From NCBI GenBank assembly GCA_003649145.1, contig QMQZ01000024.1:1-5800 (forward strand): 5,800 bases of DNA. Reading direction: 5' to 3'. The DNA is from Thermoproteota archaeon (GTDB lineage: Archaea; Thermoproteota; Methanomethylicia; Culexarchaeales; Culexmicrobiaceae). A program made the translations under genes and the position numbers. The notes under the pieces were generated by a model. The model searched no databases, was not told the DNA's origin, and saw only the letters and a list, made by a program, of their open reading frames with translations. This document shows, in pieces, positions 1-5,611 of the stretch; positions within the stretch are counted from its first letter, which is position 1; every line of letters starts with the position of its first letter.

Positions 1-24
1 AATAAATGCATTGTTAAAAAGACT

Positions 25-441
25 GTGATTATTGAGAAGTTAAAAGTCAGCAATTTTTCAAAAACAATATTTGATGTCAATATTAAACTCGGCGTACTGG
101 GCTGCGTAGCTCTCTGCTCATCAGGTTTAGGTGGATTCTCAGTCTCTGGAGCTCTTGCTTTCCGTGAAATTAGGGATGAAGAGCTTTTCAAGAAGATTTT
201 GCAGAGCATTCCTGCAGATTATTCCTTCATTTTTATTAGGAATAAGTCTCGTGGAGACTTTTACCTACTTTGTCCACGGATTTCCTCATCTATTCGAAGT
301 AAGGATGAGGCAGTTTCAATAATATCTGGAATTCTAAATTCTCTGGCTACATCGATACCTGCTAGTGAAGTTAAGATTCTGAAAGGCGAAGAGCTGGTCA
401 GCGCATTATTAACAGCGAGCTTTTGGGGTGTTGAGCTATGA
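25..441 (+). CDS. Small protein of unknown function, first gene of the operon, possibly 5'-partial
   Basis: I do not recognise this protein. The first usable start is GTG at 25, giving 138 residues, but the frame stays open to position 1 and no ribosome binding site precedes the GTG, so the gene may begin outside the window. A Gly/Ser-rich hydrophobic patch lies at about residues 21-46. It is followed by a mixed alpha/beta stretch with a probable strand (SFIFIRNKSRGDFYLL, 67-82) and a helical C-terminal part with the short motif KGEELVSALL at 120-129. That strand-helix-GEEL pattern loosely resembles N-terminal regions of VirB4/HerA-type ATPases, and a P-loop-less relative of that family lies two genes downstream, so it could be a detached N-terminal piece; this is weak inference. 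The stop overlaps the next start by 4 bp (ATGA), indicating translational coupling. The first 60 bases are very AT-rich (about 25% GC). Confidence 0.6.
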   Translation: MIIEKLKVSNFSKTIFDVNIKLGVLGCVALCSSGLGGFSVSGALAFREIRDEELFKKILQSIPADYSFIFIRNKSRGDFYLLCPRISSSIRSKDEAVSIISGILNSLATSIPASEVKILKGEELVSALLTASFWGVEL

Positions 442-857
442 TTTCCCAAAATAAGATGCGAATTGATAGTGTTTTTGAGCGAAAAGGTGATGTTGAATCT
501 CTATCTTTAGCTCTAGTTTTAAGAGGAAAGATTCCAGCAATGATCATTTCAAGTGAAGGATTAGATGCTGCTCTAAATGAGCTTCTAGCAGGCAATTATG
601 CTCTTAGGGATGGTGAATTTATACTTCCATCTCGCGAATTGAAAAGCCTCTACAATATTAAGTCTATCTGCCTACCTTCTTCGAGAGTAGTTAAGCGCGC
701 GAAGTCCATCCTAACCTTATCATTTCTAGTTGACGCTTTAACCTTCATATCCTATTTGAAATGCTCCATTAACTCCGCAATTCTCCTCCTCTTAACATCC
801 ATTCTAATGAAGGCCATTTGCATTTGGAGGTTGATGATTCATGGTAGTTGTTCCTAG
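438..857 (+). CDS. Small membrane protein of unknown function with two C-terminal hydrophobic segments
   Basis: The 139-residue protein starts at the ATG inside the ATGA overlap with the gene before it; GGGGTG at 425-430 is a plausible ribosome binding site 7 nt away. Residues 1-85 are soluble-looking, with alternating hydrophobic strands (SLSLALVLRG, IPAMIIS) and a short helix (GLDAALNELL). A basic linker (RVVKRAKS, 83-90) leads into two strongly hydrophobic segments at about 91-107 and 111-130, consistent with a transmembrane hairpin near the C-terminus. Its last 17 bp overlap the start of the HerA-like gene. Some VirB4-family translocases carry or are fused to small membrane partners (VirB3), and this protein sits directly before a VirB4/HerA-like protein, so a membrane-anchoring role is conceivable but unproven. 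GC content is low (about 38% in a sampled 60-base line). Confidence 0.65.
   Translation: MISQNKMRIDSVFERKGDVESLSLALVLRGKIPAMIISSEGLDAALNELLAGNYALRDGEFILPSRELKSLYNIKSICLPSSRVVKRAKSILTLSFLVDALTFISYLKCSINSAILLLLTSILMKAICIWRLMIHGSCS
826..830 (+). promoter_or_regulatory. Ribosome binding site for the HerA-like gene
   Basis: GGAGG lies within the end of the preceding gene, 10 nt before the ATG at 841. It supports 841 rather than the later in-frame ATG at 859 as the start. Confidence 0.6.
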
Positions 858-2184
858 AATGCTTGGGATCGTAAATTTAGCGTCTATAATCTCAAGTCTT
901 CACGCGTCCAAGTGCATTTTAGGCACTTTTGGGCCGATTAGTGAGCGAGTTAAAATTAATGCATCTATTTTGGACGCCTTGGGCTGGGAGAAGACCATAG
1001 TTATCGACGGCTTTGGAGAGTATTCTGCCCTCTGCTCATTATGCAGGGATTGTAAATTAGTTCGCCTCGGCTTTAACGCCTCTATTTCTCCCTTCAACCT
1101 ATCTTGGTTTGACCCTTATATTCGAGCTTTTGAAATTTCTGAAGCTTTCAAGTTGAGCTTCCACATAAGTGAAGTTTCTGCTAGAATTTTGCAGCAAGCT
1201 CTAGCTCGTTTCGTAGCTAGAGGTGTTTATGAGCCTAGTGTTGAGGATGTTATACTTGAAATTGAATCGCAATCGCAAATAGCATCCACTAGGCCGTACA
1301 GCTTCAGGCTTCTAAGGCTTCTAGACAATTTAACTTGGGGTAGAATTGGATCATCATTTAGTGGATTCCTGGGGCTAGATGATGTAGGTAATTCTCTCCT
1401 AATAGTAGATCTCCACCACCTACCTAGAGAATTTAGAGTTTTAGCTTCAATCCTCCTCTTCCTGAATTTTTCCGAGAGGAGCGACGTAAAACTAGTTTTG
1501 GAGGAGTCAGATCTACTAATGCCGGGCCTAATGAGAGCTTTAAGAGAGGAGTATGCTGTAGCCTTTGAGAGAACCCTCTTCATCTTAGATATTTTGAAGC
1601 GGTCGAGGAATCCTGCTATAATCTTATCTTGCAGAAGCCCTATGCTACTTGCATTCAGAGCTAGACTTAGCCTCAATTGCGCCTTTTCATCGCCTCCACG
1701 CTCTAAAGAGGAATTTAATGCTCTATCAGCTCTTCTCCCGCTTGCCGACTTCCGACTGGAGCACGTAAATTACATTCCAAGTAGTGCTTTCCTCGTATTC
1801 TATGGTGGTAGAGTTAGTATTGCAGAGCTCAAATTTAAAGAACTGCCTGAGGTGAGGATTCCAGTTGAGGACGTCATCAAGCCAACTAAGCCTAAGGTGG
1901 AGTCTGCCCTTCACAAAATGTTTAGAGGATTAGCAGACCCTGCTGCGCAGATACTGTCATTCCTACTTCAAGGAGCTGCAGACCGCGACACCCTCATGGG
2001 GTATGCTGTAGGAGTCTTAGGGCTAAGTAGCGAAGTAGCACAGCGCATAATCAGTGTGCTTTCAGCGTATGGCTTCATTGCAGATGTCGTTGGGAGAGAT
2101 GGCAAGTACTACTTGAGAATAACGCCCTCCGGCATTGCAGCGCTAAATGAGTACTCAAGCTATAGGGGTGATGGTGATGAGTAG
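841..2184 (+). CDS. HerA/VirB4-like P-loop-family protein lacking Walker A, with C-terminal winged helix
   Basis: The 447-residue protein follows the motif order of HerA/FtsK/VirB4 translocase ATPases. Residues 24-38 (ILGTFGPISERVK, from 27) occupy the Walker A position, but the expected GxxGxGK[ST] is gone: there is no GK[ST]. Next come VIDGFGEY (54-61), matching the 'D-x-x-GEY' box after the P-loop, and the SISPFNLSWFDP segment (81-92), where the family has its 'NPLD' region. NSLLIVDLHHLPREFR (184-199) matches the 'vidLs.Lp.e.r' block, KLVLEESDLLMP (217-228) a Walker B-like strand with Glu/Asp, and ILSCRSPMLL (261-270) the 'TQrPs' block. Residues 355-440 form a probable winged-helix domain ending in YYLRITPSGIAAL. 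The protein is shorter than typical HerA (about 500 or more residues). It overlaps its neighbours by 17 bp upstream and 8 bp downstream. A structural or DNA-tethering pseudo-ATPase is inferred. The family call is from motif pattern only. Confidence 0.7.
   Translation: MVVVPRMLGIVNLASIISSLHASKCILGTFGPISERVKINASILDALGWEKTIVIDGFGEYSALCSLCRDCKLVRLGFNASISPFNLSWFDPYIRAFEISEAFKLSFHISEVSARILQQALARFVARGVYEPSVEDVILEIESQSQIASTRPYSFRLLRLLDNLTWGRIGSSFSGFLGLDDVGNSLLIVDLHHLPREFRVLASILLFLNFSERSDVKLVLEESDLLMPGLMRALREEYAVAFERTLFILDILKRSRNPAIILSCRSPMLLAFRARLSLNCAFSSPPRSKEEFNALSALLPLADFRLEHVNYIPSSAFLVFYGGRVSIAELKFKELPEVRIPVEDVIKPTKPKVESALHKMFRGLADPAAQILSFLLQGAADRDTLMGYAVGVLGLSSEVAQRIISVLSAYGFIADVVGRDGKYYLRITPSGIAALNEYSSYRGDGDE
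2165..2172 (+). promoter_or_regulatory. Ribosome binding site deciding the start of the small gene before radA
   Basis: GGGGTGAT matches the archaeal anti-Shine-Dalgarno and lies 4 nt before the ATG at 2177. This favours 2177 over the in-frame ATG at 2147, which has no such motif. In-frame starts at 2171 (ATG) and 2174 (GTG) overlap or abut the motif. Confidence 0.5.
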
Positions 2185-2533
2185 CTGGATTAGATGGCAT
2201 AGAGATGGGAGAGGCTTCAGCTACGTTGTCCTAGCCTCTTCAAAGGGCCTCGTAATTGCAAATTACAGATTGACTAGGAGTGGAAATGTAAGGAGAGAGT
2301 TAATTCTCATGCCTAAGCGCTCTGACGCAGGTAGAAGTGAGGGTAAGCTTCTCTTCGAGGAGTATTATGATAGGGGGAAGGTAAATTCACTAATCCAAGC
2401 GCTTAGAGACCTCACCTCTACTTCTCCTCAACTTACCCCACGCGATTTAGTTTTTGAGCTTGACAAGGTCATTCTTCACCTTAACTACTTGAAAAAGCTG
2501 TTTTTGGAGGTGATTGAAGGTGGAGGATTTTGA
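2177..2533 (+). CDS. Small basic protein of unknown function; candidate ssDNA-binding or recombination accessory protein
   Basis: I do not recognise the family. From the ATG at 2177 the protein has 118 residues (128 from the ATG at 2147). The N-terminal part is rich in Trp/Arg/His (SSWIRWHRDGRGFSYVV) and then strand-like (KGLVIANYRL, RRELILMPKR), ending in an acidic/aromatic FEEYYDRGKV motif and a helix. The C-terminal 30 residues (from about DLVFELDKVI) look like an amphipathic Leu/Ile-rich helix that could pair as a coiled coil. A basic beta-type N-domain with a C-terminal leucine-zipper-like helix resembles the general architecture described for ThermoDBP, the ssDNA-binding protein that replaces SSB in Thermoproteales, but I cannot show homology. 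The start overlaps the HerA-like stop by 8 bp. The last 14 bp overlap the RadA-family gene, so coupling with the recombinase is likely. Confidence 0.7.
   Translation: MSSWIRWHRDGRGFSYVVLASSKGLVIANYRLTRSGNVRRELILMPKRSDAGRSEGKLLFEEYYDRGKVNSLIQALRDLTSTSPQLTPRDLVFELDKVILHLNYLKKLFLEVIEGGGF
2506..2513 (+). promoter_or_regulatory. Strong ribosome binding site deciding the recombinase start
   Basis: GGAGGTGA is an 8-base match to the archaeal anti-Shine-Dalgarno. It abuts the TTG at 2514 with no spacer but lies 6 nt before the GTG at 2520, so GTG 2520 is the better start. Confidence 0.7.
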
Positions 2534-3497
2534 GAATGAGGTTTTTAAGGAGCTTGAAGACATCCCTGGAGTTGGACCTGCAACTGCTGAGAAGCTGAGG
2601 AAAGCTGGAATCCTAACTCCAAGGCAGCTAGCCTTGTATGGGCTGGACGAGCTGCTAATGTACGTCGACGTAGACGATTACTCGAGGATAAATAGAGCTT
2701 TAATGAGAGTGAGGCGAGCTTTTAGGCCGCAGAAAGTCCTTAGAGCCTCTGAGTACGCTTCAATGCGCAGTGAGCTCCCAAGACTAACCACTGGCGTAAA
2801 GTCTATTGACCAGCTATTGGAGGGAGGCCTCGAGCCCAGGTGCATCTACGAAGTTGTTGGTGAGTATGGAACTGGTAAATCTCAACTCTGCTTCCAGCTC
2901 TCAACCACCGTCCAATTGACAGTGAATAGAGGTGGTGTTGGTGGAAAGGCTTTCTACATAGATACTGAAGGCACCTTTTCTGAGAGTAGAATAGCGAAAA
3001 TTGGAGAGCGCTTCAATATTGAAGACCCTCTGTCCGGTGTACTTGTTTTCCAGCCCATGAATGTGGACGAGCAAATAGACTGCATAAGGACTATTCTCCC
3101 TAAGTACATTGAGGAGGAGGGCGTCAAGCTAGCCGTTGTTGACAGCTTGATCTCTCACGTCCGCGCCGAGTATAGGGGTAGGGAGATGCTGGTTGCCAGG
3201 CAGCAGACGCTCAACTACATGCTAAATTTCCTCTTGAGAGTAGCTATGATGTACAACGTCTACGTCATCGTAACTAACCACGTGGTTGCTAAGCCAGTAG
3301 CTGGCGGTGGAGTTACTGCAGCTGGAGGCCATGTAGTTGCTCACGGCACTACTCACAGGTTATTCATGGCGCCTCAACACTCTAAGCGTCAGGGAATTCT
3401 AGTTAGGAGGATGCTCGTTGAGGATAGCCCCTACCTGCAGAGAGGATCATCTGCAACATTTGGAATTTCGGAGAAGGGCTTAGTGGATGTCCTCTAG
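2520..3497 (+). CDS. radA: RadA/Rad51-family DNA recombinase, divergent
   Basis: RadA-family ATPases form filaments on single-stranded DNA and catalyse strand exchange in homologous recombination. From GTG 2520 the protein has 325 residues, a normal RadA length. It contains an N-terminal helix-hairpin-helix domain (IPGVGPATAEKL, 15-26), a linker, Walker A GEYGTGKS (114-121), a TEGTF segment with the likely catalytic Glu (149-153), Walker B LAVVDS (204-209), an L1-like segment RAEYRGRE (215-222), and AGGHVVAH (268-275), which holds the ATP-sensing His. Oddities compared with RadA/Rad51: the FxxA polymerisation motif reads VLRA (73-76), the nearly invariant TNQ reads TNH (252-254), loop L2 is about two residues short and lacks the aromatic-Gly-Asp-Pro stretch, GRG in L1 is GRE, and the C-terminal 'SPhLP' reads SPYLQ. 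It is either a lineage-divergent main RadA or a full-length paralogue. It overlaps the next gene by 11 bp. Confidence 0.93.
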   Translation: MEDFENEVFKELEDIPGVGPATAEKLRKAGILTPRQLALYGLDELLMYVDVDDYSRINRALMRVRRAFRPQKVLRASEYASMRSELPRLTTGVKSIDQLLEGGLEPRCIYEVVGEYGTGKSQLCFQLSTTVQLTVNRGGVGGKAFYIDTEGTFSESRIAKIGERFNIEDPLSGVLVFQPMNVDEQIDCIRTILPKYIEEEGVKLAVVDSLISHVRAEYRGREMLVARQQTLNYMLNFLLRVAMMYNVYVIVTNHVVAKPVAGGGVTAAGGHVVAHGTTHRLFMAPQHSKRQGILVRRMLVEDSPYLQRGSSATFGISEKGLVDVL

Positions 3498-3882
3498 ACG
3501 TAGAGACATCAAGAGGCTCACTGTACTAGTCAAGTTAGGAGTTTCAGCAGACCAGCTTGAACGCGCCTTCGAGAAGTTCAAGGTGAAGTTCAGCGGCAAG
3601 CCATACTCCTGGTTTTACCGATGCAAGTTGAGGCTCGTCGACGTCTACTCTACACCTAAACCAAACATGTGGATTGTAAGGGGGAGAGGGAGTTTAGGAG
3701 ATTGTGAAGCCTTCTACGTAGTTACCTTTCACCCTAAAGACAAGGTGTACAGCTGCACCTGCTATGACCCTAAGAAGCTATTCGCCGCTATTCGAATGAA
3801 GAGGATATGCACGCATGTTGGAAGCGTGATTCTGTGGAGGATGATTAAGGAGAAGAGCATGGATGACTTCTTGGACTATTAA
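3487..3882 (+). CDS. SWIM zinc-finger protein, Shu2/SWS1-like by motif and context
   Basis: The 131-residue protein carries a SWIM zinc-binding motif near its C-terminus: C90, C92, C108 and H110 (CxC, 15 residues, CxH), in the usual setting Y-S-C-T-C ... I-C-T-H-V-G-S-V. SWIM domains bind zinc and mediate DNA or protein contacts; the SWS1/Shu2 members partner Rad51 paralogues in the Shu complex. Here the gene starts inside the end of the RadA-family gene (11 bp overlap), the strongest contextual hint for a recombination role. Eukaryotic Shu2/SWS1 proteins are described with an extended CxHxxA motif; this protein has CxHxxS (S113). The N-terminus is basic (SSRRRDIKR). The rest (VKLGVSADQLERAFEKF and a beta-rich middle with WIVRGRGS) matches no family I know. 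SWIM is also found in transposases, helicases and other proteins, so the SWS1 assignment itself is inference. Confidence 0.88.
   Translation: MSSRRRDIKRLTVLVKLGVSADQLERAFEKFKVKFSGKPYSWFYRCKLRLVDVYSTPKPNMWIVRGRGSLGDCEAFYVVTFHPKDKVYSCTCYDPKKLFAAIRMKRICTHVGSVILWRMIKEKSMDDFLDY
3847..3853 (+). promoter_or_regulatory. Ribosome binding site for the last gene of the plus-strand operon
   Basis: AAGGAGA lies inside the SWIM gene, 9 nt before the ATG at 3863. It supports that start and the 20 bp overlap. Confidence 0.55.
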
Positions 3883-4510
3883 CGCTTTGAAGTCGCGTAT
3901 AGAGTCGAATGGCTGGAAAGTAGTTACGCTGTTTGGATTGAAGCTTGAAAGGGTTATTAGTGCTTTGGCTTGCAAGTGGAAGCCTAGCTTACTTATAGTT
4001 GACATGCCGCTTCTCACCGACCTTGATGAGGATGTATTCATCCTCGAAGTTAGCGGCTCTTTATCAAAATGTATTCGCAGCTTATCAAGCATATGCTCAG
4101 ATGTGAAATGCATATTCTACACAGCTCTTCAGCAGTATACTTCAATGCAATTTCACTTTCCGCCAATAGTGAGGAGATTTGAGCTTAGAGCTAAGCGAGC
4201 TGCAATATCTAGACTTCTCTTAAGTGAGTTCAAAGTTCTATCGACTATAGCATTCGCGTATGGGGTTGAGCGGCTAATTATAGTATCACCAGTCAAGTGT
4301 ACTAACATTATGGGGAAGTGGCTTCTTCTACCCTACTTTCCAGACGTAGTCGCAAAAATATCTGATGCGATCTTCTGGGTTAGAAAGGAGAAGCTTTGCC
4401 AGTTGAAGCCAGAACTCCTATCCTTTACGCGGGAAGGTGCATGTCATCCTGATTTAAGTGAGAAACTTGCATTTGAAATTTTAAGAAACTGGTCTGTAGC
4501 ATATTCCTAG
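3863..4510 (+). CDS. Hypothetical protein, probable P-loop-less RecA/Rad51-fold accessory protein
   Basis: No confident family match. The 215-residue protein starts at ATG 3863 with a good ribosome binding site and overlaps the SWIM gene by 20 bp. Its pattern resembles a RecA-type core without Walker A. WKPSLLIVDMPLL (39-51) looks like a Walker B strand, and a long basic/helical stretch RAKRAAISRLLLSEFKVLSTIAF is given here only by position (109-131). It is followed by the strand ERLIIVSPVKC (136-146), where Rad51 proteins have their 'TNQV' strand, then KISDAIFWVRKE (165-176), resembling the late 'h.a..i.l.k' strand. No GxxxxGK[ST] occurs. Psy3 and Csm2 of the yeast Shu complex and RadB-like proteins are reduced RecA-fold partners of this general type. 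The match is by eye and would need structure prediction. The 3' end overlaps the convergent radical SAM gene by 30 bp. Confidence 0.72.
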   Translation: MTSWTINALKSRIESNGWKVVTLFGLKLERVISALACKWKPSLLIVDMPLLTDLDEDVFILEVSGSLSKCIRSLSSICSDVKCIFYTALQQYTSMQFHFPPIVRRFELRAKRAAISRLLLSEFKVLSTIAFAYGVERLIIVSPVKCTNIMGKWLLLPYFPDVVAKISDAIFWVRKEKLCQLKPELLSFTREGACHPDLSEKLAFEILRNWSVAYS

Positions 4511-5593
4511 CTCGTCAGCATACTTGAAGGATGCTTCCATCTCCTCTTGCGACGGCCTCCTAGCGATGTCTGGATACTTCTCCGGCTCCCACGCGACTAG
4601 GTATTCGGGCCTGTACTGCCCCATTATGTTTACCATTGCTCTTGGGAGGTTTTCAGCTATCCACTCTAGAATTGGCTTGGTGCAGCACTCGACGTGGTTT
4701 GGCATTACTAGGTGCCTGATGATCATGTCTATGCCGTAGTCGTGCATCATCTTGTGGTTTCTGGAGACTACTTCGAAGTACCTGTCGACCATGGACAGGC
4801 GCTTAGCGCATGAGTCATTGCCGTACTTGAAGTCTGGTAGGGCGATGTCTATTAATTCCAAGAGTATGGTTATCGTTTCTACACTGCAGTACATGTTGCT
4901 GTTCCAGAGTAGGGGGACGTTTACGTCGAGGTATTTTAGAGATTCGATTATTGTGTGGAGGTTGGGCGTCGGCTCTCCTCCTACGTAATTAATGTTCCTC
5001 ACTCCCTCCCTCCTCAGCGTAGCTTGAATTTTTGCTAGCTCCTTGGAGTTAACTTGTATTCCTGCATATGGGTGAAGTTGACTTATGTCGTAGTTTTGGC
5101 AGAAGACACACCTGAAATTGCATGAGCCGAAGAATATTGTGCCGCTTGGAACTAGTGGAGCTTCTTCACCCCAGTGGTGGAACCAGGACGACACGTATGT
5201 TTTGGAGTCTAGTCTGCAGAAGCCCTTCACTCCCTCAGCCCTGTTAACTCCACATCTTCTTTCGCAGAAGTTGCAGTGAGTGAGCATCCTCTTAACTAGC
5301 TCGATTTTCAAGTCTAGAAAGCTAACTTTAGGCTTAGGTAGGTCTTCAAGCTTCTTTTCACCTTCAACTATCTCGTCGAGTGCTTTTCTAAAGCTCTCAG
5401 CTGCTCTTTTGTGCTCTTCCCAAAGCTCTTCCTCGCTTGCTTCCGTTAAATTAACTTCTACTGGTATTCTCTTACAAATTAGGTACTTGGCTGGCTTCCT
5501 GTCCTTCATGACCTCATAGTACCATGAAAGCCTCTCTTTAACCTCCTCACTCCTCCAAACTAGAAGTGAGTCTGGACGTAAAGCGTAATACAT
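4481..5593 (-). CDS. PflX-like (COG1313-type) radical SAM protein
   Basis: This is a radical S-adenosylmethionine enzyme with the 4Fe-4S motif CxxxCxxC (C-N-F-R-C-V-F-C) and the downstream SAM-binding GGEP. Counting from the chosen ATG (5593-5591, 370 residues), these lie at about 158-165 and 205-208. A second cysteine cluster precedes it (C-x2-C-x3-C-x11-C at about 107-126, with NFCERRCGV and GVKGFCR), typical of the PflX-like 'uncharacterised Fe-S protein' group often annotated as pyruvate formate-lyase activating-enzyme-like. Later blocks LWNSNMYC, LPDFKYG and IIRHLVMPNHVE are also typical of that group. The first 105 or so residues are a charged, helical extension. The substrate is not known and true glycyl-radical activation is not shown. 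A TTG at 5602 in frame would add three residues; neither start has a clear ribosome binding site. It follows the partial gene upstream by about 18 bp, so the two are probably co-transcribed. Confidence 0.92.
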   Translation of the reverse strand: MYYALRPDSLLVWRSEEVKERLSWYYEVMKDRKPAKYLICKRIPVEVNLTEASEEELWEEHKRAAESFRKALDEIVEGEKKLEDLPKPKVSFLDLKIELVKRMLTHCNFCERRCGVNRAEGVKGFCRLDSKTYVSSWFHHWGEEAPLVPSGTIFFGSCNFRCVFCQNYDISQLHPYAGIQVNSKELAKIQATLRREGVRNINYVGGEPTPNLHTIIESLKYLDVNVPLLWNSNMYCSVETITILLELIDIALPDFKYGNDSCAKRLSMVDRYFEVVSRNHKMMHDYGIDMIIRHLVMPNHVECCTKPILEWIAENLPRAMVNIMGQYRPEYLVAWEPEKYPDIARRPSQEEMEASFKYADELGICYRPVS

Positions 5594-5611
5594 ATTTCCC
5601 AACTCATGAAT

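What the first reader, a model, noticed from the sequence alone, without database searches (positions are those of the whole stretch)
25..4510. Seven overlapping genes forming a candidate archaeal recombination-accessory (Shu-like) module
Every junction in the plus-strand cluster overlaps (4, 17, 8, 14, 11 and 20 bp with the chosen starts). The genes combine a RadA-family ATPase, a SWIM protein, a probable P-loop-less RecA-fold protein, a P-loop-less HerA/VirB4-like protein and small unknown proteins. In eukaryotes the Shu complex likewise joins a SWIM protein (Shu2/SWS1) to Rad51 paralogues with active or missing ATPase motifs. The addition of a translocase-like pseudo-ATPase and a membrane protein is not part of any Shu system I know of, so the cluster may be an undescribed system. 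Overlaps, RadA and SWIM motifs are seen; co-function is inferred.
Basis: partly seen in the sequence, partly recalled or inferred. Interest (0 to 1): 0.85.

Follow-up and report, generated by a model that had tools for sequence, protein, structure and literature searches.

The report
Archaeal Shu-like recombination operon
This stretch of archaeal DNA carries a widely conserved operon in which a relative of the DNA-recombination enzyme RadA sits with a SWIM zinc protein, a dead relative of a DNA-import motor and a possible single-strand DNA binder, suggesting an archaeal counterpart of the eukaryotic Shu complex, perhaps one that works on imported DNA.

Summary
Overlaps and domain calls hold and the gene order is not unique. 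Of 34 loci with a g3-type gene (33 genomes plus the window), 33 have a RadA-family gene downstream, 31 g4, 18 SWIM and 17 g7. These RadA proteins, with those beside SWIM genes elsewhere, are separated from 13 canonical RadA by a supported branch (61 rows, 97/98) and lack the Phe of the FxxA motif (0 of 65 against 13 of 13). The g7 model resembles RAD51. g3 has no P-loop (0 of 18 rows) and is most like a CedD-type DNA-import ATPase. g4 is weakly PC4/Whirly-like. In a Pyrobaculum Ted DNA-import locus, whose pilin gene matches PDB 8DFT, a RadA paralog of this kind and a SWIM gene lie between the TedB-like ATPase gene and the pilin gene. Best reading: a Shu-like RadA mediator with a membrane pseudo-translocase, perhaps loading RadA on imported ssDNA. 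Interactions and function are untested.

The parts
1..441 (+). g1: probably the domain after the membrane anchor of a longer protein (5' end cut by the window edge); like the N-terminal domain of a CedD-like protein
   Evidence: open frame from base 1; 48% identical to L001:4750-5337, which has a hydrophobic N-terminal stretch; a g1-like gene within 300 bp of g3 in 25 of 34 loci at E<=0.01 (the window itself is not counted because g2 lies between); CedD-like L033 protein matches it at E 2.6e-4 in a search of L001 and window ORFs only; hhalign 22.8%, E 9e-4
438..857 (+). g2: small protein with hydrophobic stretches (by eye), apparently lineage-specific
   Evidence: in-frame codon score; no match in 40 genomes of the class; no place in L001
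841..2184 (+). g3: P-loop-less HerA/CedD-like protein; the C-terminal part may be a winged helix (weak: Pfam E 0.12, PDB 3cta E 0.027)
   Evidence: 54% identical to L001; hhalign of its family to the CedD-like L033 protein 98.7%, E 1.6e-16 and to TedB-like proteins 95.7%; Walker A in 0 of 18 rows
2177..2533 (+). g4: small protein with a predicted fold weakly like PC4/Whirly/PUR, possible ssDNA binder (start 2171 was used in the analyses)
2520..3497 (+). g5: RadA paralog with HhH, Walker A and B, without the Phe of the FxxA motif
   Evidence: Pfam Rad51 E 1.8e-54, HHH_5 6.8e-8; trees; motifs
3487..3882 (+). g6: small SWIM zinc protein
   Evidence: CxC..CxH in 24 of 24 family rows, CxC..CxHxxA in 18 of 24; 2 of 24 rows match Pfam SWIM at E<=0.01, the window protein does not
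3863..4510 (+). g7: P-loop-less protein with a RAD51-like fold

Best explanation
The operon encodes an archaeal recombination-mediator complex. The RadA paralog (g5) keeps its ATP site but has lost the Phe by which RadA subunits chain together, so it should cap or seed RadA filaments rather than form its own. With the P-loop-less RAD51-fold protein (g7) and the SWIM protein (g6) it would make a Shu-like / RAD51-paralog-like complex that helps RadA assemble on single-stranded DNA; g4 may hold the ssDNA. g1 and g3 look like a split, catalytically dead relative of the membrane-bound DNA-import ATPase CedD and would fix the complex to the membrane, most likely where DNA enters, so that incoming ssDNA is passed to RadA. 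Shown: genes, order, homology, motif losses, predicted folds, and a SWIM gene plus a paralog of this kind inside a Ted import locus. Inferred: complex formation, ssDNA binding, filament seeding, and an import role for the window's own operon. That FxxA joins neighbouring subunits is recalled knowledge.
For: 61 RadA rows from g3 operons and SWIM or Ted loci are parted from 13 canonical RadA by one branch, 97/98 (first tree, 98/99). FxxA Phe: canonical 13 of 13, others 0 of 65; Walker A in 13 of 13 g5 rows. g7 RAD51-like, with an intact P-loop in L088. RadA paralog within 5 kb of the best SWIM gene in 27 of 64 loci, 17 of 54 without those first reached through g3, 11 of 47 without any g3. Ted locus L155: TedB-like, RadA paralog, HerA-like, SWIM, pilin matching PDB 8DFT (E 7.5e-64) and a TedA-like gene on one strand. 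TedB-like, SWIM and paralog genes also together in L156, L157, L158, L162, L163 and L164.
Against: 35 of 64 SWIM loci have no RadA-family gene within 5 kb (some contigs are short) and 2 have as nearest one scored canonical, L088 and L101. 16 of 34 g3 loci have no adjacent SWIM. The RadA genes of 16 of 33 g3 loci score higher with the canonical than with the paralog profile (L030, L031, L088, L194, L204-L215), though the tree puts those it holds outside the canonical group. TedC, TedA, ParA, CedA-like and TedB-like queries find nothing below E 0.1 in the window and 13 kb of L001, and the L001 genome has only weak CedD-model matches (best E 1.5e-9). g4's fold match is under the reliable range. 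g7 and g5 profiles match only weakly (18.7%), and other P-loop folds such as CobU and KaiC are also in g7's fold list. The SWIM family has no PDB match below E 0.35.
Confidence: 0.6

Rival explanations
1. A general repair mediator: a Shu-like complex that helps RadA at breaks and stalled forks, with no tie to DNA import; the CedD-like part is only a recruited scaffold.
For: No import gene found beside the operon in the window or L001; g3 is catalytically dead; a weakly Cas4-like gene (E 0.0098) stands beside the paralog in L094.
Against: SWIM and a paralog of this kind sit inside Ted loci; g3's closest relative found is a CedD-like ATPase.
Confidence: 0.25
2. A part of integrated conjugative elements, or a domesticated remnant of one: the cassette serves transfer or upkeep of the element.
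For: TedB-like, SWIM and paralog genes occur in several copies in G011 and G172.
Against: In the five genomes closest to the window (G001, G158, G134, G063, G247) g3 has one match each and conserved neighbours; no relative of the SWIM family in viral contigs (17 pattern matches, none confirmed); no PHROG match at E<=0.1 for g3, g4, g6, g7.
Confidence: 0.12
3. An anti-phage or anti-plasmid defence module.
For: HerA-like and RecA-like proteins occur in defence systems (recalled).
Against: Seven window proteins gave one weak PADLOC match, mad8 to g5, E 0.0016.
Confidence: 0.03

Closest known systems
Eukaryotic Shu complex (Shu2/SWS1 with Rad51 paralogs such as SWSAP1)
   Same: A SWIM protein with a CxC..CxHxxA-type motif together with Rad51-family proteins (PMC6316741, passages); in yeast some partners lack ATP motifs (recalled)
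   Different: Archaeal; adds a CedD-like pseudo-ATPase and a small possible ssDNA binder; no interaction shown; no sequence match to a solved structure
CedD / CedB (crenarchaeal DNA-import ATPases)
   Same: CedD is a TM part, an N-terminal domain and a HerA/VirB4/CedB-like domain (PMC11868833, passages); g1 and g3 both match a CedD-like protein
   Different: Split into two genes, no Walker A, no window match to the CedD model
Ted DNA-import locus of Pyrobaculum
   Same: Holds a RadA paralog of the same group and a SWIM protein
   Different: Has a TedB-like ATPase, a separate HerA-like ATPase, pilin and channel, which the window lacks. The main texts of the Ted paper (PMC9905601) and of PMC11868833 have no word beginning rada or swim
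Canonical archaeal RadA
   Same: HhH, Walker A and B
   Different: FxxA Phe lost, other side of a supported branch

Membership tests
Shu complex | SWIM protein with CxC..CxHxxA | tested here: inconclusive
   18 of 24 family rows fit exactly, 24 of 24 fit CxC..CxH; the window has S for the last A
Shu complex | Rad51 paralog encoded with the SWIM protein | tested here: met
   g5 overlaps g6 by 11 bp; conserved in 18 of 34 g3 loci and seen at other SWIM loci
Shu complex | sequence homology of the SWIM protein to Shu2/SWS1 | tested here: inconclusive
   no PDB match below E 0.35 by profile; no eukaryotic sequence was compared directly
Shu complex | physical complex that promotes recombinase assembly | not testable with these tools
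   no complex prediction or assay at hand
Canonical RadA recombinase | Phe of the FxxA polymerisation motif | tested here: not met
   13 of 13 canonical rows, 0 of 65 others, window Val
Canonical RadA recombinase | passes the TIGR02236 cut-off | tested here: not met
   240.3 vs 361.15 bits; it does pass NF003301, 262.3 vs 259
CedD | HerA-type domain homologous to CedD | tested here: met
   g3 family to L033, itself a CedD-like protein of 246.6 bits under the 600 cut-off: 98.7%, E 1.6e-16
CedD | Walker A | tested here: not met
   0 of 18 g3 rows
Ced/Ted import system | pilin, channel and active ATPase genes at the locus | tested here: inconclusive
   nothing below E 0.1 with single-protein queries for pilin, channel, ParA and a TedB-like profile in the window and 13 kb of L001; these proteins diverge fast and the window is 5.8 kb

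The most novel reading that the evidence does not exclude
Archaea have a dedicated Shu-type complex for the missing step after DNA import: a SWIM and RadA-paralog mediator, tied to the membrane by an ATPase-dead CedD-like partner or encoded inside Ted loci, takes incoming ssDNA from the channel and seeds RadA on it. The eukaryotic Shu complex would then share ancestry with, or have arisen again from, a DNA-exchange module.
Probability: 0.3. Interest if true: 0.92.

Novelty: new variant of a known kind. Interest (0 to 1): 0.8.

Why it matters
It gives a candidate prokaryotic counterpart of the SWIM and Rad51-paralog complexes and links such proteins to DNA exchange. It makes two open questions testable: where the Shu complex came from, and how DNA imported by Ced/Ted reaches RadA. 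It also points to SWIM and RadA-paralog genes as parts of the Ted locus that the two import papers seen here do not name in their main texts.

Tried and rejected
Rejected: a chance run of overlapping ORFs (order conserved across divergent genomes). Rejected: g5 as the genome's own RadA (the L001 genome has two stronger ones, 322.8 and 320 bits, the operon's at 194.6, and a weak one at 61.7). Rejected: g2 as a core part. Defence: one weak PADLOC match. Viral origin: SWIM patterns gave no confirmed relative.

Led nowhere: Pfam and NCBIfam on the window's g1, g2, g3, g4, g6, g7; PDB by sequence for g6 and the g7 family; for the g4 family, yheA at E 0.0042 was not followed; g1 against TedB-like profiles (0.6%); g7 against g5 by profile (18.7%). 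Shu-complex entries were not among the rows shown for g7, which excludes nothing. Asgard and other phyla were not reached, as no handle from them was at hand. S. acidocaldarius was not in the list of control genomes with Pfam SWIM, but that model finds only 2 of 24 of this family.

Weak points of the counts. The TedB-like profile was built from five proteins, one of which (L080, 766 aa) is not TedB-like. The 'chance about 2%' rests on an assumed 3.5 Rad51-family genes per 1.85 Mb. In one search the profiles were trained on some of the proteins counted. L032 and L194 end at contig ends. Of the 14 genomes, G243 was dropped as HerA-type; of the 28, G098, G176 and G194 were not and were added (all three have g3, g4 and a RadA gene; no SWIM seen).

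Full report
Observation. The window holds seven plus-strand ORFs whose junctions overlap by 4, 17, 8, 14, 11 and 20 bp with starts at 438, 841, 2177, 2520, 3487 and 3863. Only g5 and the minus-strand radical SAM gene match Pfam or NCBIfam clearly. g1 is open to the left edge; its homologue in L001 has 55 more N-terminal residues, hydrophobic by eye, so g1 is probably cut. g2 has coding-like codon use, no match in 40 class genomes and no place in L001.

Relatives. A genome-contig scan with g6 gave one locus, L001, from a MAG titled Candidatus Culexmicrobium profundum. It has g1, g3, g4, g5, g6 and g7 in this order, then the same radical SAM gene on the other strand. Alignment identities to the window: g1 48%, g3 54%, g4 57%, g5 74%, g6 57%, g7 29%. 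A g3 profile hit 14 of 398 genomes drawn from the phylum, a wider one 28 of 40 genomes of the class, some of whose matches are CedD/HerA-like, and a SWIM profile 67 of 398.

Conservation. Of 34 loci with a g3-type gene (33 genomes and the window), 33 have a RadA-family gene downstream on the same strand (directions), 31 have g4, 25 g1, 18 SWIM and 17 g7. The profiles were trained on some of these proteins, though not on their places. Of the 18 loci with SWIM, 16 have it after the RadA gene; L094 and L102 have it before. In L030 and L031 the gene after the paralog is a MazE/AbrB-like coiled-coil protein (weak, E 0.0065). In many members of the class no SWIM is adjacent.

RadA paralog. The L001 genome has four Rad51-family genes: 322.8, 320, 194.6 (the operon's) and 61.7 bits. 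In a first tree of 54 proteins, 20 operon paralogs, 13 SWIM-adjacent ones and two others were parted from 13 canonical RadA by a branch of 98/99. In a wider tree of 74 rows, 61 such proteins, now with those of the Ted loci and the class members, are parted from the 13 canonical ones by a branch of 97/98. Roots are arbitrary, and 'canonical' was my label, given by score. By simple profile score 16 of 33 operon RadA genes are nearer to the canonical profile, so part of the group is not far diverged. Still, the Phe of FxxA is present in 13 of 13 canonical rows and in 0 of 65 others, Val being commonest (the 65 include a few rows outside the group and identical copies). Walker A is present in 13 of 13 g5 rows of alignment A10.

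SWIM link. For 64 of the 67 SWIM genomes the best SWIM locus was examined. 27 have a RadA paralog within 5 kb; two (L088, L101) have as nearest a gene scored canonical, of which L088 lies outside the canonical group in both trees; 35 have none, some on short contigs. Without ten loci first reached through g3 it is 17 of 54; without the seven more that hold g3 it is 11 of 47. Expected is about 2% per locus under an assumed gene density; genomes are related, so p-values (1e-15 for 17 of 54, 4e-9 for 11 of 47) are only indicative.

Import locus. L155, from a genome whose contig is 2,009,313 bases (by recall the size of P. calidifontis), holds on one strand a TedB-like gene, a RadA paralog, a HerA-like gene, a SWIM gene, a pilin gene and a multi-TM gene. 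The pilin matches PDB 8DFT over its 112 residues at E 7.5e-64; PMC9905601 gives 8DFT as the P. calidifontis pilus, names the pilin TedC and describes the gene downstream as the CedA-like channel. Its RadA paralog groups with those of SWIM loci. TedB-like, SWIM and paralog genes recur together in L156, L157, L158, L162, L163 and L164; L165 has TedB-like and SWIM genes without a paralog. The main texts of PMC9905601 and PMC11868833 have no word beginning rada or swim (both seen as passages only).

Literature. Ten searches of the open library listed no paper whose title or abstract start describes an archaeal SWIM and RadA-paralog operon. Only listings and passages were seen; subscription papers, among them older work on SWIM domains and Sws1 (recalled), are not held. 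The claim of novelty is limited to that.

Mechanism and verdict. The combination is best read as a RadA mediator of Shu type with an added membrane pseudo-translocase. The motif losses say that g5 should not polymerise like RadA and that the window's g7 and g3 should not hydrolyse ATP. That the complex acts at an import channel is suggested by g1/g3's kinship to CedD and by the Ted locus; it is not shown. Function, interactions and ssDNA binding are untested.

Noticed in passing
window 4481-5602 (-): Radical SAM gene converging on g7 with a 30-bp overlap; the same neighbour follows the operon in L001 and L021-L024, so it is local synteny of this lineage.
   Followed up: partly
L001:3969-4616 and 13 further loci: A winged-helix-like protein with a hydrophobic tail lies near the operon; divergent in L001 and L021-L024, orientation not checked everywhere (same strand in L102). 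A possible regulator.
   Followed up: no
L025:12026-12523, L029:3781-4149, L030:11317-11796, L031:10659-11111, L075:9264-9641, L086:5208-5576, L166:8550-8945: Different DNA-binding-like proteins (C2H2, MazE/AbrB-like, CopG-like by eye) beside these genes end in a similar NPW-containing stretch, as if they dock on one partner.
   Followed up: no
G011 (L078, L162-L164) and G172 (L080, L156, L157): Several copies per genome of TedB-like, HerA-like, SWIM and RadA-paralog genes, perhaps integrated elements.
   Followed up: partly
L070:5194-6332: A KaiC-like ATPase gene overlaps a SWIM gene in G213.
   Followed up: no
L201, L203, L216, L033: CedD-like ATPase genes end a pilus-like gene cluster (large ATPase, membrane proteins, small pilin-like protein; by eye) in genomes that also have a g3 gene.
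   Followed up: partly
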